A model generated the notes under the pieces. It made no database searches, had not been told where the DNA came from, and worked only from the letters and a program-made list of their open reading frames with translations. From NCBI RefSeq assembly GCF_024339125.1, contig NZ_CP101417.1, positions 4,103,001-4,167,000 on the forward strand: 64,000 nucleotides of DNA, written 5' to 3'. The DNA is from Xanthomonas hortorum (lineage in GTDB: Bacteria; Pseudomonadota; Gammaproteobacteria; Xanthomonadales; Xanthomonadaceae). Of this stretch, positions 13,059 through 64,000 are shown in pieces (positions within the stretch are counted from its first letter, which is position 1; every line of letters starts with the position of its first letter). Position numbers and translations under genes: made by a program.

Positions 13059-15071
13059 ATGCGGCTGTTCTTGTGCGAGAAGCCTTCCCAGGGCAAAGAC
13101 ATTGGCCGGATTCTCGGCGCCACGCAACGCGGTGAAGGCTGCCTCAACGGTTCCGGCGTCACCGTCACCTGGTGCATCGGCCATCTCGTAGAGGCGGCGG
13201 CACCCGAAGCCTACGACGAACAGCTAAAGCGCTGGTCCATCGAGCAGTTGCCCATCATTCCCCAGCGTTGGCAGGTCGAGGTCAAACCGAAAACCGCCAC
13301 GCAATTCAAGGTCGTCAAGGCGCTACTGGCGAAGGCAACACAGCTTGTCATCGCCACCGATGCCGACCGCGAAGGCGAACTGATCGCCCGCGAGATCATT
13401 GACCTGTGCGGCTACCGCGGCCCCATCGAGCGGCTGTGGTTGTCGGCACTCAACGATGCGTCCATTCGCGCCGCGCTAGGCAAACTCCGGCCATCGGCCG
13501 AGACGCTGCCGATGTACTACTCGGCACTAGCGCGCTCGCGTGCGGACTGGCTTGTGGGCATGAACCTCAGTCGGTTGTTCACGGTGCTGGGTCGGCAAGC
13601 CGGCTACGACGGAGTGCTGTCGGTCGGTCGCGTCCAGACCCCGACGCTCAAGCTGGTCGTGGACCGCGACCGCGAGATCGCGGCCTTCGTGTCCGTGCCG
13701 TACTGGGCCATCGACGTGTACCTGACCACAAGCGGCCAAGCCTTCACCGCGCAGTGGGTTTCGCCCGACACCTGCACCGACGACTCGGGCCGCTGCCTGC
13801 AGCAGCCGGTGGCACAGCAGGCGGCGCAGCAGATCCGCGCCACCGGCAGTGCCCAGGTTGTCTCGGTCGAAACCGAGCGCGTGCGTGAAGGCCCGCCGCT
13901 GCCGTTCGACCTGGGCACCTTGCAGGAGTTGTGTTCCAAGCAGCTTGGGCTGGATGTGCAGGAAACCTTGGACATCGCTCAGGCCCTGTACGAAACGCAC
14001 AAGGCCACGACCTATCCGCGTTCGGATTCCGGCTACCTGCCGGAGAGCATGTTTGCCGAAGTCCCCATAGTCCTCGACAGCCTGCTCAAGACCGATTTCT
14101 CGCTGCGCCCGATCATTGACCAACTCGACCGCACACAACGCTCACGCGCTTGGAACGACGCGAAGGTGTCCGCGCACCACGGCATCATCCCGACGCTCGA
14201 ACCGGCGAACCTCTCGGCCATGAGCGAGAAGGAACTGGCGGTGTACAAGCTCATCCGGGCGCACTACCTCGCGCAGTTCCTTCCTCACCACGAGTTCGAT
14301 CGCACAGTGGCGAACCTCTCTTGCGGCCAGCAGACGCTGACGGCCACAGGAAAGCAGGTGGTCGTCAAGGGCTGGCGCCTGGTGTTGGCCGAACCGCAAC
14401 CCGAGGAGGATAGCGACACCGCGGCGCGCAGCCAGGTGCTGCCCGCGCTACGCGAGGGCGTGTCATGCCAGGTAGCAGATGTCGATCTGAAGGCGCTCAA
14501 GACACAGCCATCTCGACCCTACACGCAGGGCGAATTGGTCAAGTCCATGAAAGGCGTCGCCAAGCTGGTCTCGGATCCGCGCTTGAAACAGAAACTCAAG
14601 GATACGGTCGGCATCGGCACCGAAGCGACACGGGCTAACATCATCAGCGGCCTGATCGCACGCGGCTATCTCATGAAGAAGGGGCGCGCGATTCGCGCCT
14701 CGGATGCGGCATTCACCCTCATCGACGCCGTGCCCGCAGCGATTGCCGACCCCGGGACCACCGCCGTATGGGAACAAGCGCTAGACATGATCGAAGCGGG
14801 ACAACTCACGCTGGACGTGTTCATCGGCAAGCAGGCCGCATGGATTTCGCAGTTGATCACGCAGTACGCCAGCGCGTCCCTGTCAATCAAGGTTCCCCAT
14901 GGGCCGGCTTGCCCGCAGTGCGGCGCACCCACGCGCCAGCGCAGTGGCAAGAGCGGCCCGTTCTGGTCGTGCAGTCGCTATCCAGACTGCAAAGGCACGC
15001 TGCCGGTCGAGTCCGGCACGTCCAAGCGCGTAGCCTCACGCTCGCGCCGTGGCTGCCGAAAAGACTCCTGA
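13059..15071 (+). CDS. topB: DNA topoisomerase III (ICE TopB/TraE type)
   Basis: 670 residues. The TOPRIM start MRLFLCEKPSQGKDIGRILG and DADREGE identify a type IA topoisomerase; the active-site tyrosine is Y319 in TTYPRSDSGYLPE. The C-terminus has a four-cysteine zinc ribbon (CPQCG ... CSRYPDCKGT). It relaxes and decatenates single-stranded substrates, and ICE copies are thought to help replication and strand transfer. Length is normal for the family. Start ATG 13059 follows GGGTGGACGGAC, 279 bases after ssb. Confidence 0.95.
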   Translation: MRLFLCEKPSQGKDIGRILGATQRGEGCLNGSGVTVTWCIGHLVEAAAPEAYDEQLKRWSIEQLPIIPQRWQVEVKPKTATQFKVVKALLAKATQLVIATDADREGELIAREIIDLCGYRGPIERLWLSALNDASIRAALGKLRPSAETLPMYYSALARSRADWLVGMNLSRLFTVLGRQAGYDGVLSVGRVQTPTLKLVVDRDREIAAFVSVPYWAIDVYLTTSGQAFTAQWVSPDTCTDDSGRCLQQPVAQQAAQQIRATGSAQVVSVETERVREGPPLPFDLGTLQELCSKQLGLDVQETLDIAQALYETHKATTYPRSDSGYLPESMFAEVPIVLDSLLKTDFSLRPIIDQLDRTQRSRAWNDAKVSAHHGIIPTLEPANLSAMSEKELAVYKLIRAHYLAQFLPHHEFDRTVANLSCGQQTLTATGKQVVVKGWRLVLAEPQPEEDSDTAARSQVLPALREGVSCQVADVDLKALKTQPSRPYTQGELVKSMKGVAKLVSDPRLKQKLKDTVGIGTEATRANIISGLIARGYLMKKGRAIRASDAAFTLIDAVPAAIADPGTTAVWEQALDMIEAGQLTLDVFIGKQAAWISQLITQYASASLSIKVPHGPACPQCGAPTRQRSGKSGPFWSCSRYPDCKGTLPVESGTSKRVASRSRRGCRKDS

Positions 15072-43416: not shown

Positions 43417-43840
43417 GGGCCTTGCGTCGGCCCTCCTCCTCGCGCTGCTGGGCGGCTGCGCCACCAGCAAGGAGGATCTGCTGACCCACGGCGACCGCTC
43501 GATGATGGATATCTGGCAGCAGGAAACCGGCGACGGCGCGGTGGGTGGTGCCGGCCAGGTGGCTCACCGCCTGCTGCTCGACGCGCGCCAGAGCCTGCGT
43601 CGGCCGCTGACCGACGCCGACGTGCAGGCCGCACCCGCCGAGCAGATGCGCTACACGCGCACGGCGCGCAACGAGGTCTATCGCCAGTTCCAGCGCCTGC
43701 CCAATCCCGACCTGGTGATGTACGTATTCCCCCATTTGGCCGGCACGGACCCCGTGCCGGTTCCGGGCTACAGCACCGTGTTTCCGCTGTACCAACGCAT
43801 CCAATACGCCATGCCGGGCGAGCGCGTGGAGGACTACTGA
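43397..43840 (+). CDS. conjugative transfer lipoprotein (TIGR03751)
   Basis: 147 residues from the ATG at 43397 after GCAGGAGAAAACC. A lipobox LLGGC (cysteine near residue 21) and the family text DLLTHGDRSMMDIWQQETGD are present. This is the TraV/VirB7-like lipoprotein of the core complex. The stop overlaps the VirB4-type start (TGATG). Confidence 0.9.
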   Translation: MLSNLTKGLASALLLALLGGCATSKEDLLTHGDRSMMDIWQQETGDGAVGGAGQVAHRLLLDARQSLRRPLTDADVQAAPAEQMRYTRTARNEVYRQFQRLPNPDLVMYVFPHLAGTDPVPVPGYSTVFPLYQRIQYAMPGERVEDY

Positions 43841-48770: not shown

Positions 48771-49732
48771 TCCGCCTATTCGACCCGTTGCGCCGCCTGC
48801 GTGTCGCGGTGGCCTCGCTGCTGCTGGTCAGCGCCACAGCGAGCTACGCATTGAATACCGCAACCATCGTCGGTTCAGTGGCATCGCCAGATTGCCTGGA
48901 GTACCGGGTGGTGGGCATCTGCTACTGGCTCTACTGCACTGTAAGCGGCTGCACGGTGCGCACGTCCGTCAAAGTGCGCCACTACATTCCCGATGCGGTC
49001 GTCTCCAGCTACAACAACACTGGCGAAAATCCTTGGACCGATGTGCGTGCGATGAGCGCCTCCAACGCGACAGCTCGCGCGGGTGGTGACGGCATCACTA
49101 ACGACGACCACGAGAACAATCTCGCACGATTCAAGAACGCCGATGTCATCGGCCATCCCGGCGGCGAGGTGTTCAACCAGTTCGCGTCGTCTTCGGGCTA
49201 TTTCTGCGAGGGCGCTGGCATGGCGTTCATGCCGTATCTGCTCAGCACCCTGGACACACTGGCCTGGCGCTACAACGTGCCCGAGATGGCTTACCCGGAG
49301 GCGCTGACCCCGGGCATTCGCGAGATCGGCGCGCGCTCGACGTCGAACCTCTGGGGCAACGTCTATCCGCGCGGCGGCTTCCTGCACCAGACGGACGACC
49401 ACAAGGCTGGTGCCGTGGTGGCCCAACGCGCGGGGGATGTGGTCACGCGCCGCGGGCAGGTCCATGTCTATCAGCCGCTGCTGGCAAACTCGCGGCCCGG
49501 CTACTGGCCTGCCGGCGCGCTGATGGAGGGTAATGCCTCGACCGGCAAGTGGCAGGAACTCACGCCCGCGCTGTCCTCGTCCTGCACGGTCTTCCCGCGC
49601 GGCGGCTCCCTGATTCAAGCCACTCAAACCACTCAAGCCCAGCAAGGCGACTACGCCTGGGCGCTGTGGCGGCCCTATGTGTGCTGCGAACGCCGGGGCC
49701 AGGTGTTCCTCGGCAGCGTCGATTTCGATTGA
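48767..49732 (+). CDS. ICE protein, PFL_4710 family (TIGR03756), TraU-like
   Basis: 321 residues with a signal peptide (VAVASLLLVSATASYA) and a cysteine-rich mature part (VVGICYWLYCTVSGCTVRTS). Matches TIGR03756, the TraU-like periplasmic protein needed for DNA transfer. Its stop lies ten bases before the next gene. Confidence 0.9.
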   Translation: MIRLFDPLRRLRVAVASLLLVSATASYALNTATIVGSVASPDCLEYRVVGICYWLYCTVSGCTVRTSVKVRHYIPDAVVSSYNNTGENPWTDVRAMSASNATARAGGDGITNDDHENNLARFKNADVIGHPGGEVFNQFASSSGYFCEGAGMAFMPYLLSTLDTLAWRYNVPEMAYPEALTPGIREIGARSTSNLWGNVYPRGGFLHQTDDHKAGAVVAQRAGDVVTRRGQVHVYQPLLANSRPGYWPAGALMEGNASTGKWQELTPALSSSCTVFPRGGSLIQATQTTQAQQGDYAWALWRPYVCCERRGQVFLGSVDFD

Positions 49733-49742
49733 GGATACGGCG

Positions 49743-51137
49743 ATGAAGCGTCCTGAACTGATGAATCTCTCTACCAAGGCACGCCGCCTGCTGCGCACCA
49801 CGGCGCTGGCCGGCGCGCTTGCCCTGGGCTGCGGCCTCGCATGGGCGCAGAACGGCTTCCAGGCCAGCGGCCCCGTCATCGGCGATGAGGTCATGTATTC
49901 GATTGGTGGTGGCAGCGCGGTGTCCATGGGCCGCGCGGCAGGCATGCGTTCGATCGGAGTCGGTGCGGGCTGGAACAGCAACCTGATCTGCGGCGACATG
50001 AACATCCAGACCACGCTGAAGAACCAGCTCAACGGTGTCACGAACGGCTTTCAGCAGATCATGAGCAACGTGATCCAGAGTGCTACCAGCGCCGTGGCAT
50101 CCCTGCCTGCGCTGATCATCCAGCGCGCCGATCCAGGCTTGTACAACCTGCTCACAAATGGCGTGCTGCAGGCGCGGCTGGACTTCGACCGCTCGAAGCT
50201 GACGTGCCGCGCCATGGCCGAGAAGATGGCCGAGACGGCCGGCGGCCAGCTTGGCTGGAGCCAGATGGCACAAGGCATGGCGCTGCGCGATGCGGTGTCT
50301 AGCACGGATGCCGTGTCGGCGATCGAGCAAGCGGAAACCAAGCGCGGCAATGACGGCGTGCCCTGGGTGGGCGGCAGCAATGCCGGTGGCGCGGGCCAGC
50401 CGGCCATCCGAGTGGTCGGCGATGTCACTCGGGCGGGCTACAACCTGGTCAATGGCCGCAGCGTGACCGACACGTCATCCATCGCCCAAGCGAGTTGCGC
50501 AAGCCTGTCCTGCCAGACCTGGACCTCGCCGCAACAGGCGGTCGAATGGGCGACGCGGGTCCTGGGCGAGAAAGAGCAGCGCATCTGCGATGCCTGCACC
50601 AAGACCGAGACAGTGCCCGGTGTGGGGCTCACGCCGCTGATCCAGGAGGAGTACGAGGCGAAGTTGGAAGCCTTGCAGGAGCTGATCTCGGGGACGCGCA
50701 ACACGACGTTCGAGAACCTGCGCGTGGCTGGCAGCACCTCGCTGCCCATCACGCGCGGCGTCATCGAGGCGCTACGCGACGAGCCCGATCAAGACCTGCT
50801 GGCGCGGCGGCTGGCGTCCGAGGTGGCGCTGTCGTCCGTGCTGGAGAAAGCTCTGCTGCTCCAGCGGACCCTGCTGACGGGCAAGAAGGAGCCCAACGTC
50901 GCCGCCAATGAACTCGCGGTGGAGGCCGTGAACCACGAGAGCGACACGCTCGACCGCGAGATCCAGAACCTGAAGACCGAGCTGGAACTGCGCCGCGAGC
51001 TGGCCAACAACTCGCCGATGGCCATCATCCAGCGCCACGGCACGCGTGCGGCGGGTTCGCGTGGCATCTACGAGGGTGATCCGGTGCCTGACCGTCTCGA
51101 CCAGTTGCAGAAGGGCAATCCGGGAGTCCGGCCATGA
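49743..51137 (+). CDS. ICE protein, PFL_4711 family (TIGR03755), TraH-like
   Basis: 464 residues from ATG 49743; the earlier frame start at 49677 is inside the TraU-like gene. A signal peptide (TALAGALALGCGLAWAQ) precedes NGFQASGPVIGDEVMYSIGG. Late coiled-coil segments. Matches TIGR03755, a TraH-like part of pilus extrusion. Overlaps the next gene by ATGA. Confidence 0.9.
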   Translation: MKRPELMNLSTKARRLLRTTALAGALALGCGLAWAQNGFQASGPVIGDEVMYSIGGGSAVSMGRAAGMRSIGVGAGWNSNLICGDMNIQTTLKNQLNGVTNGFQQIMSNVIQSATSAVASLPALIIQRADPGLYNLLTNGVLQARLDFDRSKLTCRAMAEKMAETAGGQLGWSQMAQGMALRDAVSSTDAVSAIEQAETKRGNDGVPWVGGSNAGGAGQPAIRVVGDVTRAGYNLVNGRSVTDTSSIAQASCASLSCQTWTSPQQAVEWATRVLGEKEQRICDACTKTETVPGVGLTPLIQEEYEAKLEALQELISGTRNTTFENLRVAGSTSLPITRGVIEALRDEPDQDLLARRLASEVALSSVLEKALLLQRTLLTGKKEPNVAANELAVEAVNHESDTLDREIQNLKTELELRRELANNSPMAIIQRHGTRAAGSRGIYEGDPVPDRLDQLQKGNPGVRP

Positions 51138-51496: not shown

Positions 51497-53014
51497 ATGA
51501 CGCTTTTCACCACCGACTACCTGGAGTACTACCTCACCCTTGTCTCCTGGATCGTCAATAACGGCATCTGGGCCGTGTTGGTATCCAGCGGGGTATTTGC
51601 GCTGCCCTTTGTGGCGATCATCGTGCAGGAATGGCTCAAGGCCCGCACGGAAGGTGCCGACGAAGGCAACAAGGGCGTGCTCTCGGCTGCGCGCATCGAG
51701 AACCGAGTGTTCGTCGCCATCGTGGTAGTGATGTTTGCTGGCATCCCTTTCATCGACGTCGACCTCAACACCATCCAGTACGACAGCTCACGCTCCGCGC
51801 AGTGCCAGGTCAGCGTGCCGCAGCCGGCCGACACAGGTTGGTCGCAGTCCTTCTCGACCCTCAACAATCAAAGCGCAAAGTTGCCGGTGTGGTGGGCCTT
51901 CATCCACGCGCTCTCGCGCGCTGTCACGGGCGCTTCTGTCGCGGCAATCCCCTGCGGCACCGACCTGCGGCAGATGCGGATGGAGATTGACGCCACGCGC
52001 ATCGACGATCCAATGCTGGCCCAGGAAGTGGCGGATTTCAGCCACGATTGCTACGGGCCGGCCCGTGCCAAGCTGTTCATGCAGCGCCCGCAACTTGATG
52101 AAGACCAGATGCACGATGTCACCTGGATCGGCTCGCGCTTCTTGACGGACACGGCCGGCTACTACGACAGCTATCGCTCCAGCACGCCGCGCGAGGACTG
52201 GCCCTACGACAGCAACCGAGATGCAGGGCTTGCGCAGGTGTCCAGCGGCGGCGGATACCCGAACTGTCGGCAATGGTGGGCCGATGGCAGCAACGGCCTG
52301 CGGGCACGGCTGCTGGGCCAGGTGGACCCAAACCTGCTCACGCGGCTGGCGGGCTGGGCTGGGTTCCTGAGCCGCGCCGACGTGGATGATTCGGTGATTC
52401 GCGCGATCGCCTCGCCGCGTCAGCAGAAACTCAACCAAGGCTCGGTCTATACAGACTACGGTGGCCAGATCGACAAAACCTTGCCGAACATCGTGACGCG
52501 CGCGGCAGGTGACGTGGGAATGGCCGTTGGGGGACTGGCAGCATTCCCCGCAATGGACGTGGTGCGCCAGGCCCTGCCCATGGTGCTCGCGCTCCTCAAG
52601 ATGGCGTTGGTGATTTGCATTCCTCTGGTATTGGTCGTGGGCACCTACGACCTCAAGATGGTCGTCACGGTCAGCGTCGTGCAGTTCGCGCTGTTCTTCG
52701 TCGATTTTTGGCTCCAGTTGGCCCGCTGGATCGACAGCACCATCCTTGATGCGCTCTATGGATGGGGCTGGGGATGGAACCGGCCGCACAATAACTTCGA
52801 TCCGATGGTCGGATTGAACAATGCCTTCGGCGACATGCTTCTGAACTTCGTCACCGGGACGATGTTCTTGGTCCTGCCGACTTTTTGGGTCGCAGCGTTG
52901 GGGTGGGTCGGGATCAAGGCCGGGGTGATCGCTCAGAACCTTGCCGTAGGCTCCAAGGAAGCTCGTGATAGCGCAGGGGTGGGTGTAAACAAGGTAGCTG
53001 GCAAAGTGCTGTGA
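51497..53014 (+). CDS. traG: TraG N-terminal-domain conjugation protein (VirB6-like)
   Basis: 505 residues with several membrane spans at both ends (WAVLVSSGVFALPFVAIIVQ; LPMVLALLKMALVICIPLVL; VVTVSVVQFALFFVDFWLQL; MLLNFVTGTMFLVLPTFWV). This matches the MPF-G TraG-type protein that forms the inner-membrane channel. Start follows AAGGGGAGAGTCAGGCA. In related ICEs DUF3742 and the relaxase follow; here the next DNA is unrelated cargo. Confidence 0.88.
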   Translation: MTLFTTDYLEYYLTLVSWIVNNGIWAVLVSSGVFALPFVAIIVQEWLKARTEGADEGNKGVLSAARIENRVFVAIVVVMFAGIPFIDVDLNTIQYDSSRSAQCQVSVPQPADTGWSQSFSTLNNQSAKLPVWWAFIHALSRAVTGASVAAIPCGTDLRQMRMEIDATRIDDPMLAQEVADFSHDCYGPARAKLFMQRPQLDEDQMHDVTWIGSRFLTDTAGYYDSYRSSTPREDWPYDSNRDAGLAQVSSGGGYPNCRQWWADGSNGLRARLLGQVDPNLLTRLAGWAGFLSRADVDDSVIRAIASPRQQKLNQGSVYTDYGGQIDKTLPNIVTRAAGDVGMAVGGLAAFPAMDVVRQALPMVLALLKMALVICIPLVLVVGTYDLKMVVTVSVVQFALFFVDFWLQLARWIDSTILDALYGWGWGWNRPHNNFDPMVGLNNAFGDMLLNFVTGTMFLVLPTFWVAALGWVGIKAGVIAQNLAVGSKEARDSAGVGVNKVAGKVL

Positions 53015-53280: not shown

Positions 53281-54183
53281 TCAGGCCCGTTCCTGGGGCT
53301 GCACATCCGTTGGCTTAGTGCACAGCCGCACGCCAGCCGCTGCTAGCACCACGCCGGCCCAAGCCAGCGCTGGCATCGGTTCATTCAGCAGTACGAGAGC
53401 GAAAAGCGCGGCGCAGGGAGGCACCAAAAAAAACACCGCTGATACTTTAGCCGCCTCGTTGCGCCGGATCATCAACATCAGCAGCGCCACAGCCAGCAGC
53501 GAGTTGCATAACGCCAGATAACCGAGCGCCCCGAGCAGCGGCCAAGTCCAAACGAGGTGCGTGGTTTCCAGGCTCAGCACCAATGGCACTACCACCACAA
53601 GGCCAAACACATACTGAACGGTCAACGACACCAGCACCGGCTGCGGCTCCAGGGTTTTCTCCAGGAGCACGGCGCCACAAAGACCCAGCAACGACAGCCA
53701 CGCCAAGCCCATGCCCAACGCGGTGAAGCGCTCCACTTGCGACTTGCTCAGGATGACCACCGCTGCGCCAGCGAACCCCAACAACATGCCCATCCATTGA
53801 GGACGAGCCAGCGGTGTACGCAGCAGCGGCGAGGCCACACCGACCAGCACCGGCTGCATCGATACGATCAGCGCCAAAAGGCCTGCGGAAATTCCCGCAC
53901 TTATCGCCAGGTAAGTCCCGGCAAAGTAAACGCACTGCATGAGCATGCCGATGGCGATAAGGCCAAGCCATTGCCGGCCTTTAGGCAAGGGGGGCTTTTG
54001 CAGGAACACCAGCGGCAACAGCACCAGTACCACCAGCACATAGCGCAACCATAGAAACAATAATGGACTGCTGTAGTTCAGTCCCACTTTGACAATGGAA
54101 AACCCGGACGACCACAGCAGCAAGAACACTAAGCAGATCAGCAGATCCGCACGCTTGCGTAACGCCTTCAGGCATTTCCTCAC
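53281..54183 (-). CDS. EamA-family (DMT) exporter
   Basis: 300 residues with ten predicted membrane spans in two EamA repeats (LICLVFLLLWSSGFSIVKVG at the start; GALGYLALCNSLLAVALLML and ALFALVLLNEPMPALAWAGV later). GTG start at 54183 overlaps the SerB stop (GTGA). EamA proteins export amino acids or small metabolites. As the last gene of the NRPS operon it is the candidate product exporter or resistance gene. Confidence 0.88.
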   Translation of the reverse strand: MRKCLKALRKRADLLICLVFLLLWSSGFSIVKVGLNYSSPLLFLWLRYVLVVLVLLPLVFLQKPPLPKGRQWLGLIAIGMLMQCVYFAGTYLAISAGISAGLLALIVSMQPVLVGVASPLLRTPLARPQWMGMLLGFAGAAVVILSKSQVERFTALGMGLAWLSLLGLCGAVLLEKTLEPQPVLVSLTVQYVFGLVVVVPLVLSLETTHLVWTWPLLGALGYLALCNSLLAVALLMLMIRRNEAAKVSAVFFLVPPCAALFALVLLNEPMPALAWAGVVLAAAGVRLCTKPTDVQPQERA

Positions 54184-55091
54184 TCAACACCCTCATTATG
54201 CAGGCTGTGAGGGAACGCCTCACTGCCAATCTGCTCGCTACACGCCAAGGCATGGATTATGCCGTCGAGCCCAGTGTGGTCCAGCACGATATCGCACGCC
54301 GGCAGCAGCGCTGCCTGTGGCCGAAAACCTACAAACAGGCCGCAGAACCTGGCCATTTCCAGATCGTTGGCACCATCCCCCACGGCAATTACCTGCTGCG
54401 GCGAAAAGCCGTTGCGCTTGCAAAGACTGGCCAGGATGTCAGCTTTGCCCTGGGCGTCGATCACCTCGCCGAGTAGCGTGCCGGTAAGGGTCTCATGGGC
54501 GATCTCCAACTCATGTGCAAACGCCTCGTCAATTCCCAGTGCCTGGCGAAGCGGCTGCGCAACCAACTGAAAGCCGCCGCTGACGATAGCGCTGCGAAGG
54601 CCGGCCGCTGCCGCTGCGTGGATCAACTCGCGTGCACCAGGAGCGAGCGGGCAGGAATGTTCTATCAATTCGTGTACATCGCTTAACGCCGTTCCGCGCA
54701 GCAGGCCGATTCGATAGCGCATGCTGGCGGCGTAGTCGTGCCCAGGATCCGTAATCGCCTGGAGGGTGAGTGCGCTGACTTGCTGCCCTACCCCGGCAAG
54801 GTTGGCCAGTTCCACCATGGTTTCGCTCTCGATGAGGGTGGAATCCATGTCGCAAGCTAACAGGCGAAAGCGCCTCAAGGTCAGGCCCCCCGGTACCACC
54901 GCAAAGTCGATTTCGTGCTGGCGCAACGCGAAGAAAAGATCCCCGCGTCCCCCCTCATGGCGGTCAAGCCAAGGAGTGAACAGAAACCCGGGGCCAACAC
55001 GTGGCCCCGCGAAACCGACCTCTTTCATCCATCGCACAAGGCCACTACGTGATTGCAGATCTGAGCCAAACAAGATCAGGTATCGTTTCAT
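54180..55091 (-). CDS. SerB-like phosphoserine phosphatase (HAD family)
   Basis: 303 residues. HAD motif I DMDSTLIESE (D81), motif II SAIVSGGF, motif III GKADILASLCKRNG and motif IV VGDGANDLEMA are all as in SerB. The N-terminal part has a weak ACT-like region. In an operon with an NRPS it may supply serine-type precursor or remove a phosphate from an intermediate. A housekeeping serB would be expected elsewhere, so this is probably a pathway-specific copy. It overlaps the EamA gene and starts 55 bases after the oxygenase stop. Confidence 0.85.
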   Translation of the reverse strand: MKRYLILFGSDLQSRSGLVRWMKEVGFAGPRVGPGFLFTPWLDRHEGGRGDLFFALRQHEIDFAVVPGGLTLRRFRLLACDMDSTLIESETMVELANLAGVGQQVSALTLQAITDPGHDYAASMRYRIGLLRGTALSDVHELIEHSCPLAPGARELIHAAAAAGLRSAIVSGGFQLVAQPLRQALGIDEAFAHELEIAHETLTGTLLGEVIDAQGKADILASLCKRNGFSPQQVIAVGDGANDLEMARFCGLFVGFRPQAALLPACDIVLDHTGLDGIIHALACSEQIGSEAFPHSLHNEGVE

Positions 55092-55146: not shown

Positions 55147-55962
55147 TCAGCTCCAATAAGTCAACGGTCGATCACTGCCATAGCAACCGATAAACGCTGC
55201 CATGCCAATACGATAACTCTCATCGCTGGGCGTAACGGCGTGCAGCATGCGCGAGCTAAAAATGATCAAATCGCCAGCATCGGGATGGATCACCAGCGGA
55301 GCTTGCTCGACCTCATCTGGCAGCAGGCCTTCAACGTCGCGGATTTTAACCATTTCCTCGGGGGTCGGGTCGCGCAACCAGAGTTGCAGGTCGCCGCCCT
55401 GCTTGGGGGTGCGTAAGTACATATTAGCGACCATCTGCTCTTCAATACCGGCCAGTTCAGGCGCATCCGACTCTTCGATGATGGTGTCGTTATGCGGATA
55501 AAAGCGCGATGAGGAAGGCCTGAATACCCGGATGGCTCCCACAAAGCAGCTATGTCCGTGCAAGCGCTGAATGTTTGCACCGCCCGGCCAGAACTCCTGC
55601 AATTGCAGGCGAATTTTGTCGGCCGGCGTCAGATGCGGAGCAAACAGCGTGCGTAGGTCCTGAATGTTTTCCACTGCTTCATCGTGATACTTGCGCGCTG
55701 CCAACGGATCCCATTCCGAGTCGATATGAGGTGTACAGATGCGTCCCACGCTGCTGGTGTACTTTTTGTTGTAGTGGCCCAGTTTCGGGTGGTCGATACA
55801 CCGGGACGCTGCCCGATCAGCAACGTCTACCGGGTAATAGCCCTTGACATGAATGGCACCGATCTCGCGCATCGACAGTTCGAGAAGCGTGTCGGTCGTT
55901 AATTCCGTGGCGACGATGGCCGGAGCGATTTCTCTTCTTGCCGGTTTTACTTGTACGTTCAT
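55147..55962 (-). CDS. 2-oxoglutarate/Fe(II)-dependent oxygenase
   Basis: About 271 residues from 55962, where the ATG follows ATGAGGACTAAAGGC; an ATG at 56001 overlapping the SDR stop (ATGA) is an alternative. The iron site is readable as H-x-D in RFYPHNDTI, a distal histidine in SSRMLHAVTPSDES, and the 2-oxoglutarate arginine in YRIGMAAF. HxD, not HxG/A, predicts hydroxylation or another oxidation, not halogenation. Likely tailors the amino acid or the NRPS product. Confidence 0.82.
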   Translation of the reverse strand: MNVQVKPARREIAPAIVATELTTDTLLELSMREIGAIHVKGYYPVDVADRAASRCIDHPKLGHYNKKYTSSVGRICTPHIDSEWDPLAARKYHDEAVENIQDLRTLFAPHLTPADKIRLQLQEFWPGGANIQRLHGHSCFVGAIRVFRPSSSRFYPHNDTIIEESDAPELAGIEEQMVANMYLRTPKQGGDLQLWLRDPTPEEMVKIRDVEGLLPDEVEQAPLVIHPDAGDLIIFSSRMLHAVTPSDESYRIGMAAFIGCYGSDRPLTYWS

Positions 55963-55997
55963 GCCTTTAGTCCTCATTGGGAAAAAAATACGTAGGA

Positions 55998-56750
55998 TCA
56001 AACCCGCTGGCGGGTGGGACGCAGACGGATGTCATCGATATGCACGTGGGGCGGCTGATCAAGCACGAAACGGATGGAGCGGGCTACATCCTCAGCGCTC
56101 AGGAACGGGCCGAGGTCACGTTCCAGCGTGTCGAAGGCGTTCATGTCGTAACCTGCGGACTGCTGGAACCCGCTGCGCACGAAACCAGGCTCAATCAGAG
56201 TGACGCGGATCAGGCTGCTGGCCAGTTCCTGGCGCAGCGACTCCACCAGAGAATGCAGGGCGAACTTGGTGGCCCCATAGACGGGGTTGCCCGCGGACAA
56301 CGTGCGGCCAACGGTGGAGCCGATCACGACGATGTCCTGCACCGTATCGCTGCTGCGCTCGCGCTCGCTGAACGCTTTGGCCACGGCGCGTAATTGCTGC
56401 ATCGCGCCAAGCACATTGATAGCAATCAGCTCCTCCCATTGCGCCTGGTCCGAGGTGAGCAGCGAGCCGGGCAAGCCCCTACCTGCGCAGAGCACAAAGG
56501 CACTCGGCGGCTCGCCGAAGTTGTGTTCACTCGCGCGCCACAGTTGCTCCACGTGGGTGACATCGCGTACGTCTGCCGCTACGCCGATGATGCCTCCGGG
56601 CTGCTGGGAAGCCGCGCAGATCTGCTCCAGGCTGTCCTGATTACGCCCGCTGATGGCCACCTGAATACCTGATTGCGCGAGGTTTTGCGCTATCGCTCGG
56701 CCGATGCCAGAGGTGCCGCCTGATACCGCGACTGTCATGTGGTTAGTCAT
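55998..56750 (-). CDS. short-chain dehydrogenase/reductase
   Basis: 250 residues. The NAD(P) motif TVAVSGGTSGIGRAIAQ, the IVVIGSTVG serine and the YGATK (Y-x-x-x-K) are present in the Rossmann order. Start overlaps the NRPS stop (ATGA), so it is translated after the NRPS. It could reduce the aldehyde that an NRPS reductase domain would release. Confidence 0.88.
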   Translation of the reverse strand: MTNHMTVAVSGGTSGIGRAIAQNLAQSGIQVAISGRNQDSLEQICAASQQPGGIIGVAADVRDVTHVEQLWRASEHNFGEPPSAFVLCAGRGLPGSLLTSDQAQWEELIAINVLGAMQQLRAVAKAFSERERSSDTVQDIVVIGSTVGRTLSAGNPVYGATKFALHSLVESLRQELASSLIRVTLIEPGFVRSGFQQSAGYDMNAFDTLERDLGPFLSAEDVARSIRFVLDQPPHVHIDDIRLRPTRQRV

Positions 56751-57319
56751 GTCCTGCTGTACTCCTTGCGTTGAACACTTGCATTAAATGCTGCCGGCTG
56801 CGCCTGACGGAATAGGCCCAGATCGCTCAGGCGCTTCACGAACCTCAATACCCAGTCGTGCGACAGCTCAGTGAATTCCACTCCGTGGGCTGACAGCCGT
56901 GACAGCGTTCGGGAATGGTCGTAGATAATGTTGCGGGGCTCTCGCGATGCCCAAAACAAGCCGAGCGCGACCGGCGCCAAAGCGGTTTTCCCGGACCGTT
57001 CCAGCGCCTCCTTGAGGCTGCCTGCAACGGTGCGTGCCACGGGAATACCCAGCTTTTGAAGCGCGTCTACGAATAGGCCGGGCGATATCGATAAGGGTGA
57101 CTCGACGTGATAGGTGCCGCTGGGAAGGCTGCTGTCCAGCGAGAGCACCACGATGCCACGGGCAACGGTATCGACCGGACTAAGCACTAAAGGCTCGTTG
57201 TAGTTGACCGGTACCATTCCCGCATGGGCGATCGCATTCACGCACTGCACCCAGCGGTTGGCATCGGCATTGCGCTGGAACAGAGCAGTTTGTGAATGCC
57301 CTGTCACATTCCCGGAGCG
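56747..57319 (-). pseudogene. NRPS thioester-reductase domain, C-terminal piece after the IS insertion
   Basis: Continues the NRPS frame directly left of the IS (reading PYRSGNVTGHSQTALF, then LSPVDTVARGIVVLSLD and the end SVQRKEYSRT). It lacks a ribosome start of its own; the ATG at 57346 lies in the IS end. With the right-hand part it rebuilds one frame; on its own it is the substrate-side half of the reductase domain and not functional. Confidence 0.9.
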
Positions 57320-57323
57320 ATAG
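57320..57323. repeat. target-site duplication, left copy (ATAG)
   Basis: ATAG at 57320-57323 directly before the IS end GGAACC; the same four bases follow the right end at 58483-58486. Removing one copy with the IS restores HSAFIYRSGNVTG in the NRPS. Confidence 0.9.
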
Positions 57324-58482
57324 GGAACCTCTGAACAACGCACCACAGATACGCGACACTACCCGCCTGATGTTGAGGAGTGATCCATGCAACTGACGTT
57401 CGGTGACGCTGAGGGCCTGGGCAAGCGCAAGCAGACCCGGCGCGAGATCTTTCTGGCCGAGATGGAGCAGGTGGTTCCGTGGCAGCAACTGCTCGGTCTG
57501 ATCGCGCCGCACTATCCGGTATCGGGCCGGCCAGGTCGGCAGCCGTACGCACTGGCGACGATGTTGCGGATTCATCTGCTGCAGCAGTGGTATGCGCTGA
57601 GCGATCCGGCGATGGAAGAAGCACTGCACGAGATCCCGACCTTGCGGCGGTTTGCCCAGCTCGGTGGCTTGGACAACGTTCCGGACGAGACCACGATTCT
57701 CAACTTTCGGCGCCTGCTGGAGACCCATGGCCTTGCCGCGCGGATGCTGGAAGCGGTCAACGCGCATCTGGCGCGCAAGGGCCAGAGCCTGCGGTCGGGC
57801 ACGATCGTCGATGCGACGCTGATCGCGGCGCCCAGTTCGACCAAGAATGCCGACAACGCGCGCGACCCTGAGATGCATCAGACCAAGAAGGGCAATCAGT
57901 GGTATTTCGGGATGAAGGCGCACATCGGCGTGGATGAATTTTCCGGGTTGGTGCACCACGTCCATTGCACAGCCGCCAACGTCGCCGATGTCACGGTGAT
58001 GCACACGTTGCTGCATGGCAAAGAAGACAGCGTGTTCGGCGATAGCGGCTACACCGGTGCGGACAAACGCGAAGAACTGCAGGCCTGCAAGGCTGCATTC
58101 TTCATCGCCGCCAGGCCCTCGACGATGCAAGCCCTCGGCAACAAACGCGAGCGTGCTCGGGAAAGACGTTGGGAACACTTCAAGGCCAGCGTGCGCGCGA
58201 AGGTGGAGCATCCATTCCGGGTGATCAAGCGCCAGTTCGGCTACACCAAGGTCCGCTATCGCGGCCTGGCCAAGAACACCGCGCAGGTGCTGACCTTGTT
58301 TGCGCTATCGAACCTGTGGATGAAGCGAAAGCAGTTACTGCCGACGATGGGGAACGTGCGCCTGTAACCCGGGCAACACCCTGCAAACGCGCCGGAAACG
58401 GCAAAAAAATCGAGGATCTGAGCGCCGTCAGCCTGGTCGATGTGGTTAGGCTCATCCTCCGATGCCGTTGATCAGACCATCC
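57324..58482 (+). mobile_element. IS5-family insertion sequence, complete, 1,159 bp
   Basis: The ends are imperfect 16-bp inverted repeats, GGAACCTCTGAACAAC at the left and, reading inward from the right end, GGATGGTCTGATCAAC (12 of 16 match). It holds one complete transposase gene and is flanked by ATAG duplications, so it looks like a recent insertion. It lies in the thioester-reductase domain of the NRPS. Confidence 0.9.
57387..58367 (+). CDS. IS5-family transposase
   Basis: 326 residues, complete. DDE-fold pattern: GTIVDATLIAAPSSTK (first Asp), VFGDSGYTGADKRE (second Asp), and the late FRVIKRQFGYTKVRYRGLAKN typical of IS5-type E-region. No frameshift, so it may still be active. Starts after GAGGAGTGATCC. 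It is oriented against the NRPS operon. Confidence 0.93.
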   Translation: MQLTFGDAEGLGKRKQTRREIFLAEMEQVVPWQQLLGLIAPHYPVSGRPGRQPYALATMLRIHLLQQWYALSDPAMEEALHEIPTLRRFAQLGGLDNVPDETTILNFRRLLETHGLAARMLEAVNAHLARKGQSLRSGTIVDATLIAAPSSTKNADNARDPEMHQTKKGNQWYFGMKAHIGVDEFSGLVHHVHCTAANVADVTVMHTLLHGKEDSVFGDSGYTGADKREELQACKAAFFIAARPSTMQALGNKRERARERRWEHFKASVRAKVEHPFRVIKRQFGYTKVRYRGLAKNTAQVLTLFALSNLWMKRKQLLPTMGNVRL

Positions 58483-61400
58483 ATAGATGAACGCGCTGTG
58501 CCCGCGATAGGCCAGTTCCCGAACAATGCCTTCGGTCAAGAATTTGCTGCGCTCGTACTCATTCAGAAAGTCTTGACCGACATCGAGGGCATCTTCATCG
58601 AATCGCGCCGCCAGCTTGCCTCGGTAACAACCGCCCACGGCCAACGTAGACATAAAATGTAGCACCTTGCTCTTGCCGGCCTCCACAAAGCGGATGAGCT
58701 CATAGGCGGGTGCAACGATGCTGCGTTGCATGTCCACGCGGCTGCCCACCAGGCGCGTGTCGGCTGCAAAGTGATAGACCGCGTCCACAGTGGAGGCCAA
58801 ATGGTCCCAATCGATCTGCGCCAAACCGAGACGAGGCTGACGCATGTCACCAACAATCACTCGCACGCGCTCGATAGCAGAGAGCGGCTGGCTGTGACCG
58901 AAGAAGTGTGCCCAGACTTCCGTAAGCCGCTGCTGGGCATCCGCTTGCGAAGGAGCCCGCACCAGACAGTGCACGGTCGCGCAACTCTGCTCGAGCAGCT
59001 CGCGCAGTATGTGCACCCCAATGAAGCCGGTGGCGCCGGTCAACAAAATAGTGCCGGGCGCATTGACGGGCGTATCGGTCGCAAAGCCTGTGGTTGCTGG
59101 CAACGCCTGCGCGGGAATGTTCCATAAAGCGCCGCTGGAGCTGCTTGAACTCAGATAAATGCCGGCTGGCTGGGCGTCCGCCCCGAGCAGCGCATGCCGC
59201 AACCCCTGCGCGAACGCCTGCATTTGGGCGGGACTGCTCATCCGTGCATTGAAGTTCAAGTCCAGGATCAACTGTTCTTCCAGCAGCCTGCCGGTCAGCT
59301 TGAACTGATTCACGCGATGGTTATCGCGCCCGCGCACCCCTTGGTAGGCCACGGCAGCAGGACGCAGTTGCAGATCGTCGCGCAGGCCCAACCGGGCTCT
59401 GCCCAGATAGTTGAAGCAATGACGGGTGGCGGTGGACGGCAACCCGGACAAGGCATAGGAATGACCTAGGTTGGGAACCTGTGCCAAGGCTCGACCGACC
59501 ACCAGCGCCGGTGCGTGTAGCAGATCGCTTGCTGGCACCGCGACTGGAAAGGCTGCAGTAAACCAGCCAACCGTGCGTGATACATCCACCTCGTCGCTCA
59601 GGCTGAGCCGCCCATGGCTTTCCACTGTGACGTTGAGAACCGGCTCCGGCCAATGAAGGCTGGCCAATTGCAGGTAGGTGCCCAGTAAGTATTGGTCGAT
59701 CGAAATGCCCGCTGCGGCTGCACGTTCAATAATGTGTGCGGTTTCGCTACGGCTGAACGAAACCCAAGCGGTGTGTGCATCCGCTTCTGTACCCGCCTCG
59801 AAGGCTTGCGGCTGCGTGACGGACAGGCGCTGATGCCACCAGCCTGCATCTGCGGCCCACTGAGCCTGGTGCTCGTGCAAATGCCGTGTCCAATTGGCGT
59901 AGCTCAACGAGCGAAGCGGACACGCCTGGCCATCGTTGACATAACGCACCGTCAGCTCATCCAGGATCAAACTCCAGGACACTACATCGACCGCCAAGTG
60001 ATGTGCCACAAGTAGCAGGTACTGCTTACCCCCTGCACGAATCAGTTCTACAAAAAACAGCGTACCTGCGCTGACATTCAACTTCTGTTCGAGGGCGGCA
60101 TAGCGCTGATTCAGCAGTGCAGCGAGGTCGTCCACGGCTGCATCTGCTTCCCAGCAGGAAAACACATGTTCGTAAGCCGGCACAGCCTCGAACACCCAGG
60201 CGTGTTCAATGCTGTCATAGCAAAAGCGAGATCGCAGCAGTTCATGTGCTTGAAGCGTTTGCAGGCAGGCACGCTGCAGCCGGTCTGCATAGAGCCGCAC
60301 GCCGGCTTCGACCAGCATGGACTGGCTCCACCGATTCGGTTCGCGAAAGTCCTGCTGCAGGAACCATTCTTGTGCCGGGCCGGCCTTGCAGGGGTTGGTC
60401 TCACGCTCGCTCCCAGTGTCGTCGGTCGTTTGCTGCGTGGCGCAGCGTAATTGGTCCAACAGCCCGTTGAGGGTCGGGTTGCCCAGAAACGCGCGGGCGG
60501 TGACATCGAACCCCTCGAGTTGTAACTCAGAGATCAGCCGCACGGCATCCAGAGAGTCACCGCCTAAATCGAAGAAATCGCTCGTAGCATCCACGGTCAT
60601 CGCCCGGCAGTGGCGCTGAAAAATCCCCCTCACCTTGTCAGACGGGTTATCGCCAACGGGCTGGGCTTGGGCTGCGTCCGCCAGCGCCGCCGTGAAGCTG
60701 GCGAGTAACTGGTGTTCTACCGCGACGATGTCGAGTTTACCGTTGGCGTTCATCGGCAACTTTGCCAAGTGATCGAAGCGAAACGGCACCATATATCCGG
60801 GCAGGGTCTTGGAAAGTTCGCTACGCAATTGCGCGGCACTTTGGTGCACGCCTTCGTAGGCACACAGCAGGTAATCGCGCTCATCGTAGCGGTGATGAAC
60901 CACCACAGCGCGCGCGTCCAGAATGCGTTGCAGGACCACTTCGACATGGCCCAGCTCGACCCGATAACCATTGACCTTGACTTGCCGATCTGCCCGGCCA
61001 ACAAATTGCAACTGGCCCTGGGCGTCCAATCGCACTTGGTCTCCGGAGCGGTAGAATCGGCGACCGTCAAGCTCGACGAAGCGTCCGGCATCCAAGTCTG
61101 AGCGCTTCCAGTAACCAAGTGCCACCTGCGGCCCACCGATAAATAGTTCGCCAACTTCCCCAGGCGCACAGTGAACGCCTTCACGGTTGTAAATGCGGAT
61201 CTCTGTTTCACCCAGAGGCCGCCCCATGGGCACACTGCCCTTGAGACTATCGAGCCAGGCACCCGGCTCCACGGCTTGAACACTGATACCGATGGTGGCC
61301 TCAGTCGGGCCATAGTGATTAAAAAGTTGGGTTACCGCGCCACTGGCCAACGTGGCCCGCGCAAGCGCCGCGCTCAGCGGTTCTCCCCCGAGCAACAACC

Positions 61401-62178
61401 AGCCCAATTCCGGGCGCCGGGTTGTACCGCCCCCGGCTTGCTCAAGCACTGTGCGCCAATGGGTAGGCGTGATTTTCAGCATATCGATGTTGCGCTCGCT
61501 CAATAGCCGGCACAACGCTTGCGGGTCTTTGCGTTCGGCGTCGTCTGCCACATAGAGGCTGCCACCGGTCCACAGCGCCAAAAACAGCCCGGTATTGCCC
61601 AAGTCCGCCGCCAGCGTGCTCACGTGGGCATAACGCAGCCCATCGCGGATTCCCAACACCTGAGTAATACCGCGGCAATAATGCGCAATGTTGTCATGGG
61701 ATACCGCGACGCCCTTAGGGGTACCGGTGGAACCCGAGGTGTACAGCACGTAGGCGGCAGCGTCTGCGGTACAAGGCAGCGTGATGGAGGGTACAGGGGC
61801 CTGGCTTGCGCTAAAGTGATAACGCACAACGTTGTCACACTCCAGGCCATAGCCTCCGGTCGCAATAACGAGGTCGGCTCCAATCTGCGCCAGCCGGGCG
61901 GTGGCCTCCTCCTGCTGGTCAGCCACCTCGATTATCGTGTAGGTCGCGCCGCTGAACATGACAGCCACCAACCCAATCACGATCTCCAGGTTTCTGGGCC
62001 CGACCACGGCCACCAGTTTGCCGTGCCCTGCCCCGCACTCGACCAGTCTATGGGCCAATGCCCTAGCCTCAAGGCCCAGTACTTCCCAACTAATCTGCCG
62101 GTAAGCATCACACAAGGCGACTTGCTCAGGCGTGCGGTTTATCCAATTGGCTAACTTAGTAATTAGTAGTCCCGACAT
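58225..62178 (-). pseudogene. NRPS module adenylation-carrier-epimerization-reductase, interrupted by the IS
   Basis: From ATG 62178: adenylation domain 1-490 (A3 YTSGSTGTPKG, A10 K481), carrier 510-580 (FFDLGGDSLD, Ser542), then motifs of an epimerization domain, PAQEWF, HHLAVDVVSW (726-735), VESHGR, SRTVGWFTAAFP and FNYLGR, and a reductase Rossmann start GTILLTGATGFIG with YERSK. The native frame ends at about codon 1231; past 58483 the frame continues 86 codons into the IS as unrelated tail, stopping at 58225. By anchored alignment the specificity residues read D192 L193 T196 K235 L262 G264 H288 I296 G297 K481, one off the published Asp code. Uninterrupted it would be 1,422 residues, a complete one-module enzyme. 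Confidence 0.88.
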
Positions 62179-62406: not shown

Positions 62407-63153
62407 ATGGCAGAACTTGCAGTGGTGACTGGTGGCAGTCGCGGTATCGGCGCTGCCATTGCCTTGAAGCTTGGGGGGCTCGGTTATCACGTGGTCCTGA
62501 CATACACCCGGGACGCCACCGCCGCCGAGCGAGTCATCCAAACCATCGTTGCGGCAGGCGGTAAGGCGCAGGCAATGCAACTGGACATCGCCTGCGAACA
62601 ACAGGTACTTACCCTGTTCAATATGCTGGATCAACAGGGCGAGCAGTTGACGCTGCTGGTCAACAACGCTGGAATCACTGAAGGCTTTTGCCGGCTCGAA
62701 GCGCTGACCTTCGAACAGTTGCAGCGGGTTTTCCAGGTGAATGTGTTTGGCGCGTTCCTGTGTGCACGTGAAGCCGTCCGGCGCATGGGCTATTCCCGAG
62801 GCGGGCATGGGGGGTCAATCATCAACGTTTCTTCGCGTGCTGCACAGTTGGGTGGCGGCGGCGAGTGGATCCATTACGCCGCCACCAAGGGCGCGATCGA
62901 TAGCCTCACCCATGGCTTGGCTAAAGAAGTAGCCGGCGATGGTATTCGAGTCAACGCCGTGGCGCCGGGGCTCATTGAGACAGACCTGCACGCCGCCGCC
63001 GGCAAGCCCGACCGGGCGGCCACCCTGGCGACGGCGGTGCCCATGGAGAGGGCCGGTCAACCCGAAGAGGTTGCAGACTGCGTTGCCTGGCTTGCCTCAT
63101 CTGCAGCAACTTACGTAACCGGCGCTATTGTTCCCGTTGCTGGGGGGCGTTGA
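62407..63153 (+). CDS. FabG-like short-chain dehydrogenase/reductase
   Basis: 248 residues. AVVTGGSRGIGAAIALKLGG (NADPH), a NNAG motif, IINVSSRAAQLGG and YAATK are present, with the end YVTGAIVPVAGGR typical of FabG-like enzymes. Start at 62407 follows AGAAGAGGTCTTTT. It lies divergent to the NRPS and could share its regulation. Its 3' end overlaps convergently with the LysR gene by 43 bases. Confidence 0.88.
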   Translation: MAELAVVTGGSRGIGAAIALKLGGLGYHVVLTYTRDATAAERVIQTIVAAGGKAQAMQLDIACEQQVLTLFNMLDQQGEQLTLLVNNAGITEGFCRLEALTFEQLQRVFQVNVFGAFLCAREAVRRMGYSRGGHGGSIINVSSRAAQLGGGGEWIHYAATKGAIDSLTHGLAKEVAGDGIRVNAVAPGLIETDLHAAAGKPDRAATLATAVPMERAGQPEEVADCVAWLASSAATYVTGAIVPVAGGR

Positions 63154-64000
63154 GCCTGCAGCCATGTACCGGCCAGGTCGAGCATCGGTAACAAATTGTG
63201 TACCGCAGCCGTGCAGTTTTCGGTTAGCCAGGCGGCGCTCATTGGCGAGCGCAGTAGATCCCCCTCAATGGGCAAGAACACAATGCCTTGGCGCTGCTCG
63301 GCGCCCACACTCTGAGGCACGAATGTCAACCCCACTCCGGCTCGCGTAAGCCCCAGGGCCGCTTGCAGGTTCTCGATCGGCTGCACGATGTGCACCCTGA
63401 CCGACGCTGCGTCGAGCGTGTTCAGGATCAGATCGGTCAGGCTGGGAAGAGGATAACGGGGGTAGAGCACGACTTTTTCGCCGTGCAGGTCCGTCACGCT
63501 GATGCGCTCGCGCCCGGCCAGTCGGTGCCATGCCGGGACGGCCGCGACCAAAGGTTCGTTCAACAGCAGTTTTTGATGGATCGCCGGGTTCTCGTTAATA
63601 GGGGGGCGGGCGAAGCCTATGTCGATGCTGCGCGTCAGGAGCGCAGGGGATATCTCGGCGGCAAGCATTTCTTTGAATGCCAACTCCACCCCCGGACAGC
63701 ATTGCTGAAACAGACCCAGCACTTCGGGTAAACCGTTGTACATGGCCGAGCCCGCGAACCCTATCACCAGACGCCCACTGCGCCCTTCGGCGATGCCCTT
63801 TACGTCGCGAATGCTGTTATGGATATCCGCCAGAATGGAATTGACCCTGAGCAGAAACTGCTCCCCCGCTTCGGTCAGACGGATGGGCCGAGTGTCGCGC
63901 TCAAGCAGTTTCACATTCAGCTCATCTTCGAGTTGTTTGATCTGCTGACTCAACGGTGGCTGGGCCATATGCAGCTTTTCGGCTGCACGGGTAAAACTCA
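63111..64000 (-). CDS. LysR-family regulator, partial (5' end beyond window)
   Basis: The first visible part is the end of the winged HTH (SFTRAAEKLHMAQPPLSQQI, reading in from 64000) and the rest is the substrate-binding domain to a stop at 63111. The N-terminal dozen or so residues are cut off. The ATG at 63968 is internal to the HTH and not the real start. Probably controls the NRPS cluster. Confidence 0.88.
   Translation of the reverse strand, partial: SFTRAAEKLHMAQPPLSQQIKQLEDELNVKLLERDTRPIRLTEAGEQFLLRVNSILADIHNSIRDVKGIAEGRSGRLVIGFAGSAMYNGLPEVLGLFQQCCPGVELAFKEMLAAEISPALLTRSIDIGFARPPINENPAIHQKLLLNEPLVAAVPAWHRLAGRERISVTDLHGEKVVLYPRYPLPSLTDLILNTLDAASVRVHIVQPIENLQAALGLTRAGVGLTFVPQSVGAEQRQGIVFLPIEGDLLRSPMSAAWLTENCTAAVHNLLPMLDLAGTWLQAQRPPATGTIAPVT

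What the first reader, a model, noticed from the sequence alone, without database searches (positions are those of the whole stretch)
56747..62178. One-module NRPS of the form A-T-E-R with an aspartate-like code
Motifs of the adenylation, carrier, epimerization (all seven E motifs can be named) and terminal reductase domains occur in order in one 1,422-codon frame. This single-module arrangement has no condensation domain. The anchored specificity code DLT-K-LG-HI-G-K differs at one place from the published Asp code. Inference: L-Asp is loaded, epimerized and released reductively from the alpha-thioester, giving D-3-amino-4-oxobutanoate or the alcohol. With the SDRs and 2OG oxygenase this could be a small Asp-derived signal or toxin. 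I know of no characterised product for this gene set.
Basis: partly seen in the sequence, partly recalled or inferred. Interest (0 to 1): 0.82.

Follow-up and report, generated by a model that had tools for sequence, protein, structure and literature searches.

The report
D-aspartate aldehyde synthetase on mobile DNA
A bacterial gene, cut in two here by a jumping DNA element, encodes a one-module enzyme that is predicted to load aspartate, flip it to its mirror form and release it as an aldehyde; relatives of the gene and of its oxygenase neighbour occur in several bacterial phyla, where they would make a small aspartate-derived compound that this work could not identify.

Summary
Adenylation, carrier, epimerization and thioester-reductase domains lie in order on the minus strand, with no condensation domain; an IS5-family element (57324-58482) splits the reductase. 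The middle domain is an E domain by sequence and by fold (top 13 structural matches). The code is DLTKLGHIGK; 118 of 118 aligned rows read DLTK[LVI]GH[IV]GK. Of six such forms searched in print only DLTKVGHVGK was found, assigned to Asp (in one survey also Asn). LysR, SDR, NRPS, SDR, 2OG oxygenase and exporter keep this order in two Pseudomonas genomes with an intact NRPS. The oxygenase has the WelO5 fold but an HxD...H site, so it is a predicted hydroxylase or cyclase, not a halogenase; 20 of 97 oxygenase hits share a contig length with an NRPS hit, but most listed NRPS hits do not. The cluster lies inside a PFGI-1-class conjugative element. Predicted: L-Asp to D-Asp alpha-semialdehyde, then (R)-3-amino-4-hydroxybutanoate, then beta-carbon oxygenation. 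Boldest reading: an oxetin-type pathway, since oxetin's 3S centre is what D-Asp would give. In this strain the pathway is probably broken; intact copies exist. Nothing was assayed.

The parts
63111..63998 (-). LysR-family regulator (open at the window's end)
   Evidence: Pfam LysR_substrate and HTH_1; 67% and 76% identity in L005 and L018
62407..63153 (+). SDR2, FabG-like short-chain dehydrogenase, divergent from the NRPS
   Evidence: Pfam adh_short_C2 2e-54; 72% and 71% identity in L005 and L018
58487..62178 (-). NRPS first piece: A, T, E domains and N-terminal half of the reductase (R)
60411..62178 (-). adenylation and carrier domains, code DLTKLGHIGK, carrier Ser in FFDLGGDSL
59074..60411 (-). 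epimerization domain (HHLAVDVVSW, ESHGRL, RTVGWFT, FNYLG)
57324..58482 (+). IS5-family (IS1646-like) element interrupting the R domain; transposase 57387-58367
   Evidence: Pfam DDE_Tnp_1; about 95% identical elements on Xanthomonas plasmids; ends and ATAG on both sides; 82 of the 98 rows of the own-genome search match the IS-encoded tail of the query
56747..57323 (-). C-terminal half of the thioester reductase domain
   Evidence: TIGR01746 positions 190-303; 74%, 70% and 51% identity in L005, L018, L014
55998..56750 (-). SDR1, NF038213 SDR_TniO_fam; predicted to reduce the aldehyde; overlaps the NRPS stop by 4 bases
   Evidence: 340 bits against a cut-off of 300; clavaldehyde dehydrogenase and sulfoacetaldehyde reductase are among 13 PDB relatives, ranks 4 and 6; coordinates
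55147..56001 (-). 2OG-Fe(II) oxygenase with WelO5 fold and HxD...H...R site; predicted hydroxylase or oxidative cyclase (start codon uncertain: relatives begin 13 residues later)
54180..55091 (-). HAD phosphatase, SerB family; accessory (not found in the L018 cluster)
   Evidence: TIGR00338 173 bits against 144
53281..54183 (-). EamA-type exporter
   Evidence: Pfam EamA; 68% and 79% identity in L005 and L018
7155..51137 (+). conjugative-element genes on the left of the cluster: ParB 7155-8852, topoisomerase III 13059-15071, TraD 35946-38135, TraC 43840-46704, TIGR03755 protein 49677-51137
   Evidence: all five over their NCBIfam cut-offs; a ParA-like frame at 5983-6972 is under its cut-off and 51497-53014 matched nothing at 1e-20; a MobH / PFGI-1 relaxase over cut-off lies 2,983 bp right of the window (L021 3384-5312)

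Best explanation
This is a seven-gene cluster, lying between conjugation genes of an integrative conjugative element, whose core enzyme has adenylation, carrier, epimerization and reductase domains (the reductase split by an IS element) and is predicted to turn L-aspartate into D-aspartate alpha-semialdehyde, which the neighbouring SDR would likely reduce and the 2-oxoglutarate oxygenase would likely oxygenate at the beta-carbon. Steps, all inferred: (1) A activates L-Asp and loads it on T; (2) E inverts the alpha-carbon of the bound residue; with no condensation domain no peptide is made; (3) R uses NAD(P)H to release (R)-3-amino-4-oxobutanoate; (4) SDR1 reduces it to (R)-3-amino-4-hydroxybutanoate (D-beta-homoserine); (5) the HxD-type 2OG oxygenase attacks the former Asp beta-carbon, giving a 2-hydroxylated or ring-closed product; (6) EamA exports it; SDR2 and the phosphatase are accessory, and LysR would control the divergent SDR2/NRPS promoters. 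Shown here: domain order, E identity, code, gene order, conservation of catalytic residues, mobile setting and IS interruption. In this strain the reductase is split, so the pathway is probably dead; no second close copy was found in the genome.
Against: Nothing was assayed. Asn is not excluded. 100 of the 120 listed NRPS hits have no length match among the oxygenase hits; some are on chromosome-sized contigs (Xenorhabdus hominickii, Dickeya chrysanthemi, Streptomyces decoyicus), so either those genomes lack the oxygenase or the one-contig-per-cluster listing hides it. The Paraburkholderia phymatum plasmid copy has NRPS and SDR1 but no match to the oxygenase in the 29,938 bases read, and has a D-Ala-D-Ala-ligase-like gene and a MATE gene beside it, so the end product need not be the same everywhere. 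Contig length is a proxy for linkage; only the window, L005 and L018 were read with both genes. Nearest neighbours agreed in only 11 of 20 pairs. The best PDB match of SDR1 is an enzyme of unstated function (3p19). Sequence cannot tell a two- from a four-electron reductase. The rows are the nearest relatives, so conservation is partly expected.
Confidence: 0.62

Rival explanations
1. The enzyme loads L-Asn and releases D-asparaginal; the rest of the route is similar.
For: A survey reports DLTKVGHVGK for both Asp and Asn modules.
Against: The same survey says most such sequences favour Asp. The code position that is His in 118 of 118 rows is Glu in the Asn module of tistrellabactin, DATKIGEVGK; that module, however, also takes Asp, so the contrast is not sharp.
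Confidence: 0.15
2. The aldehyde is not reduced first but condenses into an imine, dihydropyrazine or other ring, and the SDRs act later; the final compound is a dimer or a heterocycle.
For: Free alpha-amino aldehydes dimerise readily (recalled chemistry); two SDRs are kept with the NRPS in L005 and L018.
Against: SDR1 is the one cluster gene besides the NRPS found in L014, directly after it, and two of its 13 PDB relatives are aldehyde reductases, which fits reduction first.
Confidence: 0.15
3. The 2OG enzyme is a halogenase and the product is chlorinated.
For: Best fold is WelO5; several relatives are named 'halogenase WelO5 family'.
Against: Asp stands two residues after the first His in 98 of 98 rows; in halogenases this position is left free for halide (recalled; the solved WelO5 set includes a G166D variant).
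Confidence: 0.04
4. In this strain the cluster is a decayed remnant that makes nothing (a statement about the strain; it does not compete with the predicted chemistry of intact copies).
For: The R domain is split by an IS and no second close copy is in the genome.
Against: The other cluster frames are open; a close uninterrupted copy with 77 member sequences exists, so the loss may be recent.
Confidence: 0.6

Closest known systems
Lys2 / alpha-aminoadipate reductase and carboxylic acid reductases (A-T-R)
   Same: free-standing logic of activating a carboxylate, binding it to a carrier and releasing an aldehyde; TIGR03443 at 215 bits and NF041592 at 120 bits for the first piece
   Different: far under both cut-offs (1030 and 1300 bits; the query lacked the C-terminal half of R); an E domain lies between T and R here, which those families lack (recalled)
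HamD / PvfC / MgoA single-module reductive NRPSs (recalled, not compared here)
   Same: recalled as single-module NRPSs with a terminal reductase that give small diffusible compounds
   Different: recalled to act on aliphatic amino acids with N-oxygenase partners; no such partner was identified in this cluster
NRPS epimerization domains (TycA, GrsA, TycB3, PvdL E2)
   Same: fold, E motifs, His and Glu
   Different: the residue here goes to a reductase, not to a condensation domain
WelO5-type 2OG enzymes and the N-substituted amino-acid dioxygenase 3w20
   Different: 15-17% identity in those rows; metal site HxD as in hydroxylases
Oxetin, (2R,3S)-3-amino-2-oxetanecarboxylic acid, of Streptomyces sp. 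OM-2317
   Same: C4 beta-amino acid skeleton; 3S is the descriptor that D-Asp configuration takes in it (my derivation)
   Different: no gene cluster for oxetin turned up in two searches or in the passages read; the ring closure is a guess

Membership tests
NRPS single module of A-T-E-R type | A, T, E and R domains in this order in one gene, no C domain | tested here: met
   the gene is interrupted by an IS in this strain
NRPS epimerization domain | HHxxxDxxSW, the Glu of the EGHGRE-type motif, RTVGWFT, FNYLG; E-type fold | tested here: met
   the EGHGRE-type motif reads ESHGRL here; motif names are recalled
Asp-activating A domain | ten-residue code as in known Asp modules | tested here: met
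   DLTKLGHIGK; family DLTK[LVI]GH[IV]GK; DLTKVGHVGK printed as Asp, also Asn; activity itself not testable here
Thioester reductase (R) domain | catalytic Thr, Tyr and Lys and a glycine-rich cofactor motif | tested here: met
   Ser-Thr, Tyr, Lys in 118 of 118 rows; GxxGxxG seen in the listing, not counted; split between two pieces in the window
Lys2 / CAR carboxylate reductases | family profile at its curated cut-off | tested here: not met
   215 bits against 1030, 120 against 1300, first piece only
WelO5 halogenases | metal site with the carboxylate position left free (recalled) | tested here: not met
   HxD in 98 of 98 rows, although fold and Pfam PF22814 match
NF038213 SDR_TniO_fam | score over curated cut-off | tested here: met
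   340 against 300 bits; what TniO does was not found
PFGI-1-class integrative conjugative element | class-specific ParB, TraC, TraD and relaxase | tested here: met
   TIGR03764, TIGR03744, TIGR03754, TIGR03760 over cut-off; attachment sites and integrase were not sought
Oxetin biosynthesis | production of oxetin by the cluster | not testable with these tools
   only skeleton and stereochemistry agree

The most novel reading that the evidence does not exclude
The cluster makes an oxetin-type oxetane amino acid with three enzymes: the A-T-E-R synthetase and its SDR turn L-Asp into (R)-3-amino-4-hydroxybutanoate, and the HxD-type WelO5-fold oxygenase closes the oxetane by joining the C4 oxygen to the former Asp beta-carbon. 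The 3S centre of natural oxetin is what built-in epimerization to D-Asp would give, and many listed NRPS relatives are from Streptomyces, the genus in which oxetin was found. It would be, as far as my searches went, the first genetic basis for oxetin and a new way to make an oxetane.
Probability: 0.14. Interest if true: 0.86.

Novelty: new variant of a known kind. Interest (0 to 1): 0.62.

Why it matters
A free-standing enzyme that epimerises and reduces one proteinogenic amino acid would be a single-protein source of a chiral D-alpha-amino aldehyde. Its association with one 2OG oxygenase in part of the family, from Pseudomonas to Streptomyces and Leptospira, would mark a small natural product family, and the D-Asp step makes a definite, testable prediction about stereochemistry. 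As cargo of a conjugative element it also shows how such a pathway can reach a new host and then be interrupted by an IS.

Tried and rejected
Halogenation was considered because of the WelO5 fold and put aside on the HxD site. A condensation role for the middle domain was tested and rejected. A diazeniumdiolate (fragin-like) route was put aside because the Pfam and NCBIfam scans of the cluster genes name no N-oxygenase. The meaning of 'TniO' was not found: 0 papers with 'gene cluster'; 11 papers hold the word alone and none of the titles and abstract starts listed is about a gene. Literature on A-T-E-R enzymes: searches gave 0 papers; some searches gave one paper each, seen as listings and not opened; one search gave 4 unrelated listings. 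The phosphatase was first thought central but was not found in the L018 cluster. Genome searches: 1 of 35 genomes of the window's genus (itself; NRPS piece, 1e-150), 1 of 398 of its phylum (itself; oxygenase, 1e-50), 2 of 398 of the genus of L005 (oxygenase, 1e-50). In plasmids the oxygenase gave 10 records, all under 36% identity; the E-R part of the NRPS gave 190 records, of which 4 cover 80% of the query and only P. phymatum is above 30% among those 4 (44.5%). The PDB has no sequence match to the oxygenase. Comparison of the three divergent intergenic regions gave scattered conserved blocks and was not pursued. One search read two code positions wrongly; one search corrected this. The host genus is inferred to be Xanthomonas from the IS and not proved. 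L018's species (P. silvicola) is inferred from a contig length equal to that of P0004; its genus follows from the search group.
Full report
What was claimed.

Check of the observation. The frame 58225-62178 (-) has AMP-binding, PP-binding, condensation-superfamily and NAD_binding_4 matches in that order. The frame beyond the IS, 56747-57346 (-), matches TIGR01746 from position 190 on, and the first piece matches positions 1-184. The inserted element spans 57324-58482, with 10 of 14 matching end bases and ATAG on both sides, and carries an IS5-family transposase. Elements about 95% identical lie on Xanthomonas plasmids; 82 of the 98 rows of the own-genome search match the IS-encoded tail of the query. 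A protein cluster of 77 member sequences, represented by an uninterrupted 1,422-residue protein, is in the database, so intact copies exist. I searched the two pieces apart.

Middle domain. Against solved structures by sequence, the piece 59074-60411 (-) matches ten chains that hold E domains (PvdL, bacitracin synthase 3, GrsA, TycA, TycB) at 77-101 bits and five C-domain chains at 22.4 bits or less. An AlphaFold model (mean pLDDT 90.6, 28 rows) finds entries with E domains at ranks 1-13 and C domains from rank 14, with a step in E-value from 1.7e-29 to 6.8e-24; some of the PvdL, tyrocidine and bacitracin entries hold C domains too.

Specificity. The code, read by motif anchoring (positions recalled), is DLTKLGHIGK. 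Of the 120 listed homologues (577 pass 1e-100), 117 were aligned with the window piece and three were dropped for length. All 118 rows read DLTK[LVI]GH[IV]GK: DLTKLGHVGK 39, DLTKVGHVGK 31, DLTKIGHIGK 22, DLTKIGHVGK 12, DLTKLGHIGK 7, DLTKVGHIGK 7. The P. phymatum plasmid copy, not among them, reads DLTKFGHIGK, so F also occurs. Three other A-domain places of the same genome read DILQLGLIWK, DILHMGCTFK and DIWHLSLIEK. A search of papers for the six code forms found only DLTKVGHVGK, in two papers. In the passages read, PMC10391617 lists it as Asp for the module that gives beta-hydroxy-Asp, and PMC12283262 reports it for both Asp and Asn and says most sequences favoured Asp. That DLTKVGHIGK is the classical Asp code is recalled and was not found in print here. 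Carrier Ser, the second His and the Glu of E, and the R-domain Ser-Thr, Tyr and Lys are in 118 of 118 rows; the first His of E is in 117. These are the nearest relatives, so conservation is partly expected.

Neighbourhood. NRPS, SDR1, 2OG oxygenase, HAD phosphatase and EamA exporter run in one direction; SDR2 is divergent and LysR converges on it. In L005 (Pseudomonas piscis MC042) all seven are present in the same order; in L018 (same genus, inferred P. silvicola) six are, with no match to the phosphatase. Identities in L005 and L018: NRPS first piece 64 and 62%, second piece 74 and 70%, SDR1 74 and 75%, 2OG 85 and 90%, SDR2 72 and 71%, LysR 67 and 76%, EamA 68 and 79%; phosphatase 61% in L005. 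In L014 (Paraburkholderia phymatum plasmid pBPHY02) only NRPS (45%) and SDR1 (58%) match, beside a D-Ala-D-Ala-ligase-like gene and a MATE gene, with mobile elements around.

Pairing of NRPS and oxygenase. The oxygenase search gave 97 proteins at 1e-10 or better. Comparing by eye the longest-contig lengths printed, 20 of these 97 have exactly the length printed for one of the 120 listed NRPS hits; 57 of the 97 are on contigs of at least 6 kb. Named sources among the pairs are Actinoplanes oblitus, Streptomyces noursei, S. hundungensis, Streptomyces sp. DT24 and Leptospira perolatii. The other 100 listed NRPS hits have no length match, among them some on chromosome-sized contigs (Xenorhabdus hominickii, Dickeya chrysanthemi, Streptomyces decoyicus); whether they lack the oxygenase was not tested. 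Over the 20 pairs the two distance matrices correlate at r = 0.86; 0 of 2000 permutations reach it; nearest neighbours agree in 11 of 20. The genes are rare: 1 of 35 genomes of the window's genus (itself), 1 of 398 of the phylum (itself), 2 of 398 of the genus of L005.

Other genes. SDR1 scores 340 bits against a cut-off of 300 for NF038213; of 13 PDB relatives the best is 3p19 of unstated function, and clavaldehyde dehydrogenase (1.3e-20) and sulfoacetaldehyde reductase (1.7e-19) rank 4 and 6. The phosphatase is over the SerB cut-off and has no second match in the genome at 0.001.

Mobile setting. ParB, TraD, TraC and a further element protein on the left, and a MobH / PFGI-1 relaxase 2,983 bp to the right of the window, are over their cut-offs, so the cluster lies inside a PFGI-1-class element. 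Its ends were not sought.

Mechanism. L-Asp is loaded, epimerised on the carrier and released by reduction as (R)-3-amino-4-oxobutanoate (inferred from domain identity). SDR1 would give (R)-3-amino-4-hydroxybutanoate. The oxygenase would act on the former beta-carbon. Oxetin, (2R,3S)-3-amino-2-oxetanecarboxylic acid (configuration in a passage of PMC12207814; name in PMC9921373; herbicidal and a glutamine synthetase inhibitor in passages of PMC8147305, and PMC7829935; called a very weak inhibitor in PMC3202864), has this skeleton. If its C4 comes from the Asp alpha-carboxyl and its C2 from the Asp beta-carbon, the ranks of the two carbon substituents at C3 swap and D-Asp (R) becomes 3S, as in the natural product; L-Asp would give 3R. 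This is my derivation, not a published route. 15 papers hold the word oxetin, 14 were listed, and passages of five were read; none of these passages gives genes for it.

Verdict. In this strain the gene is interrupted.

Noticed in passing
L019 6768-8298 (P. piscis): A second WelO5-like 2OG oxygenase (32% identical) sits next to a cyclodipeptide-synthase-like protein and an MFS gene; a separate small pathway.
   Followed up: partly
L014 8683-9756: A D-Ala-D-Ala-ligase-like gene upstream of the P. phymatum plasmid copy; it could be a resistance gene or a ligase that uses the D-amino product.
   Followed up: partly
G000:C1 4193153-4218137: NRPS matches in open frames of 3147 and 5505 codons about 26-51 kb to the right of the window.
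   Followed up: no
55147-56001: Several public relatives of this oxygenase are named 'halogenase WelO5 family' although the metal site is HxD, a probable misnaming.
   Followed up: yes
54180-55091: This SerB-family phosphatase has no second match in the whole genome at E 0.001.
   Followed up: partly
55998-56750: The NCBIfam name TniO for this SDR family points to a named gene whose pathway I could not find.
   Followed up: partly
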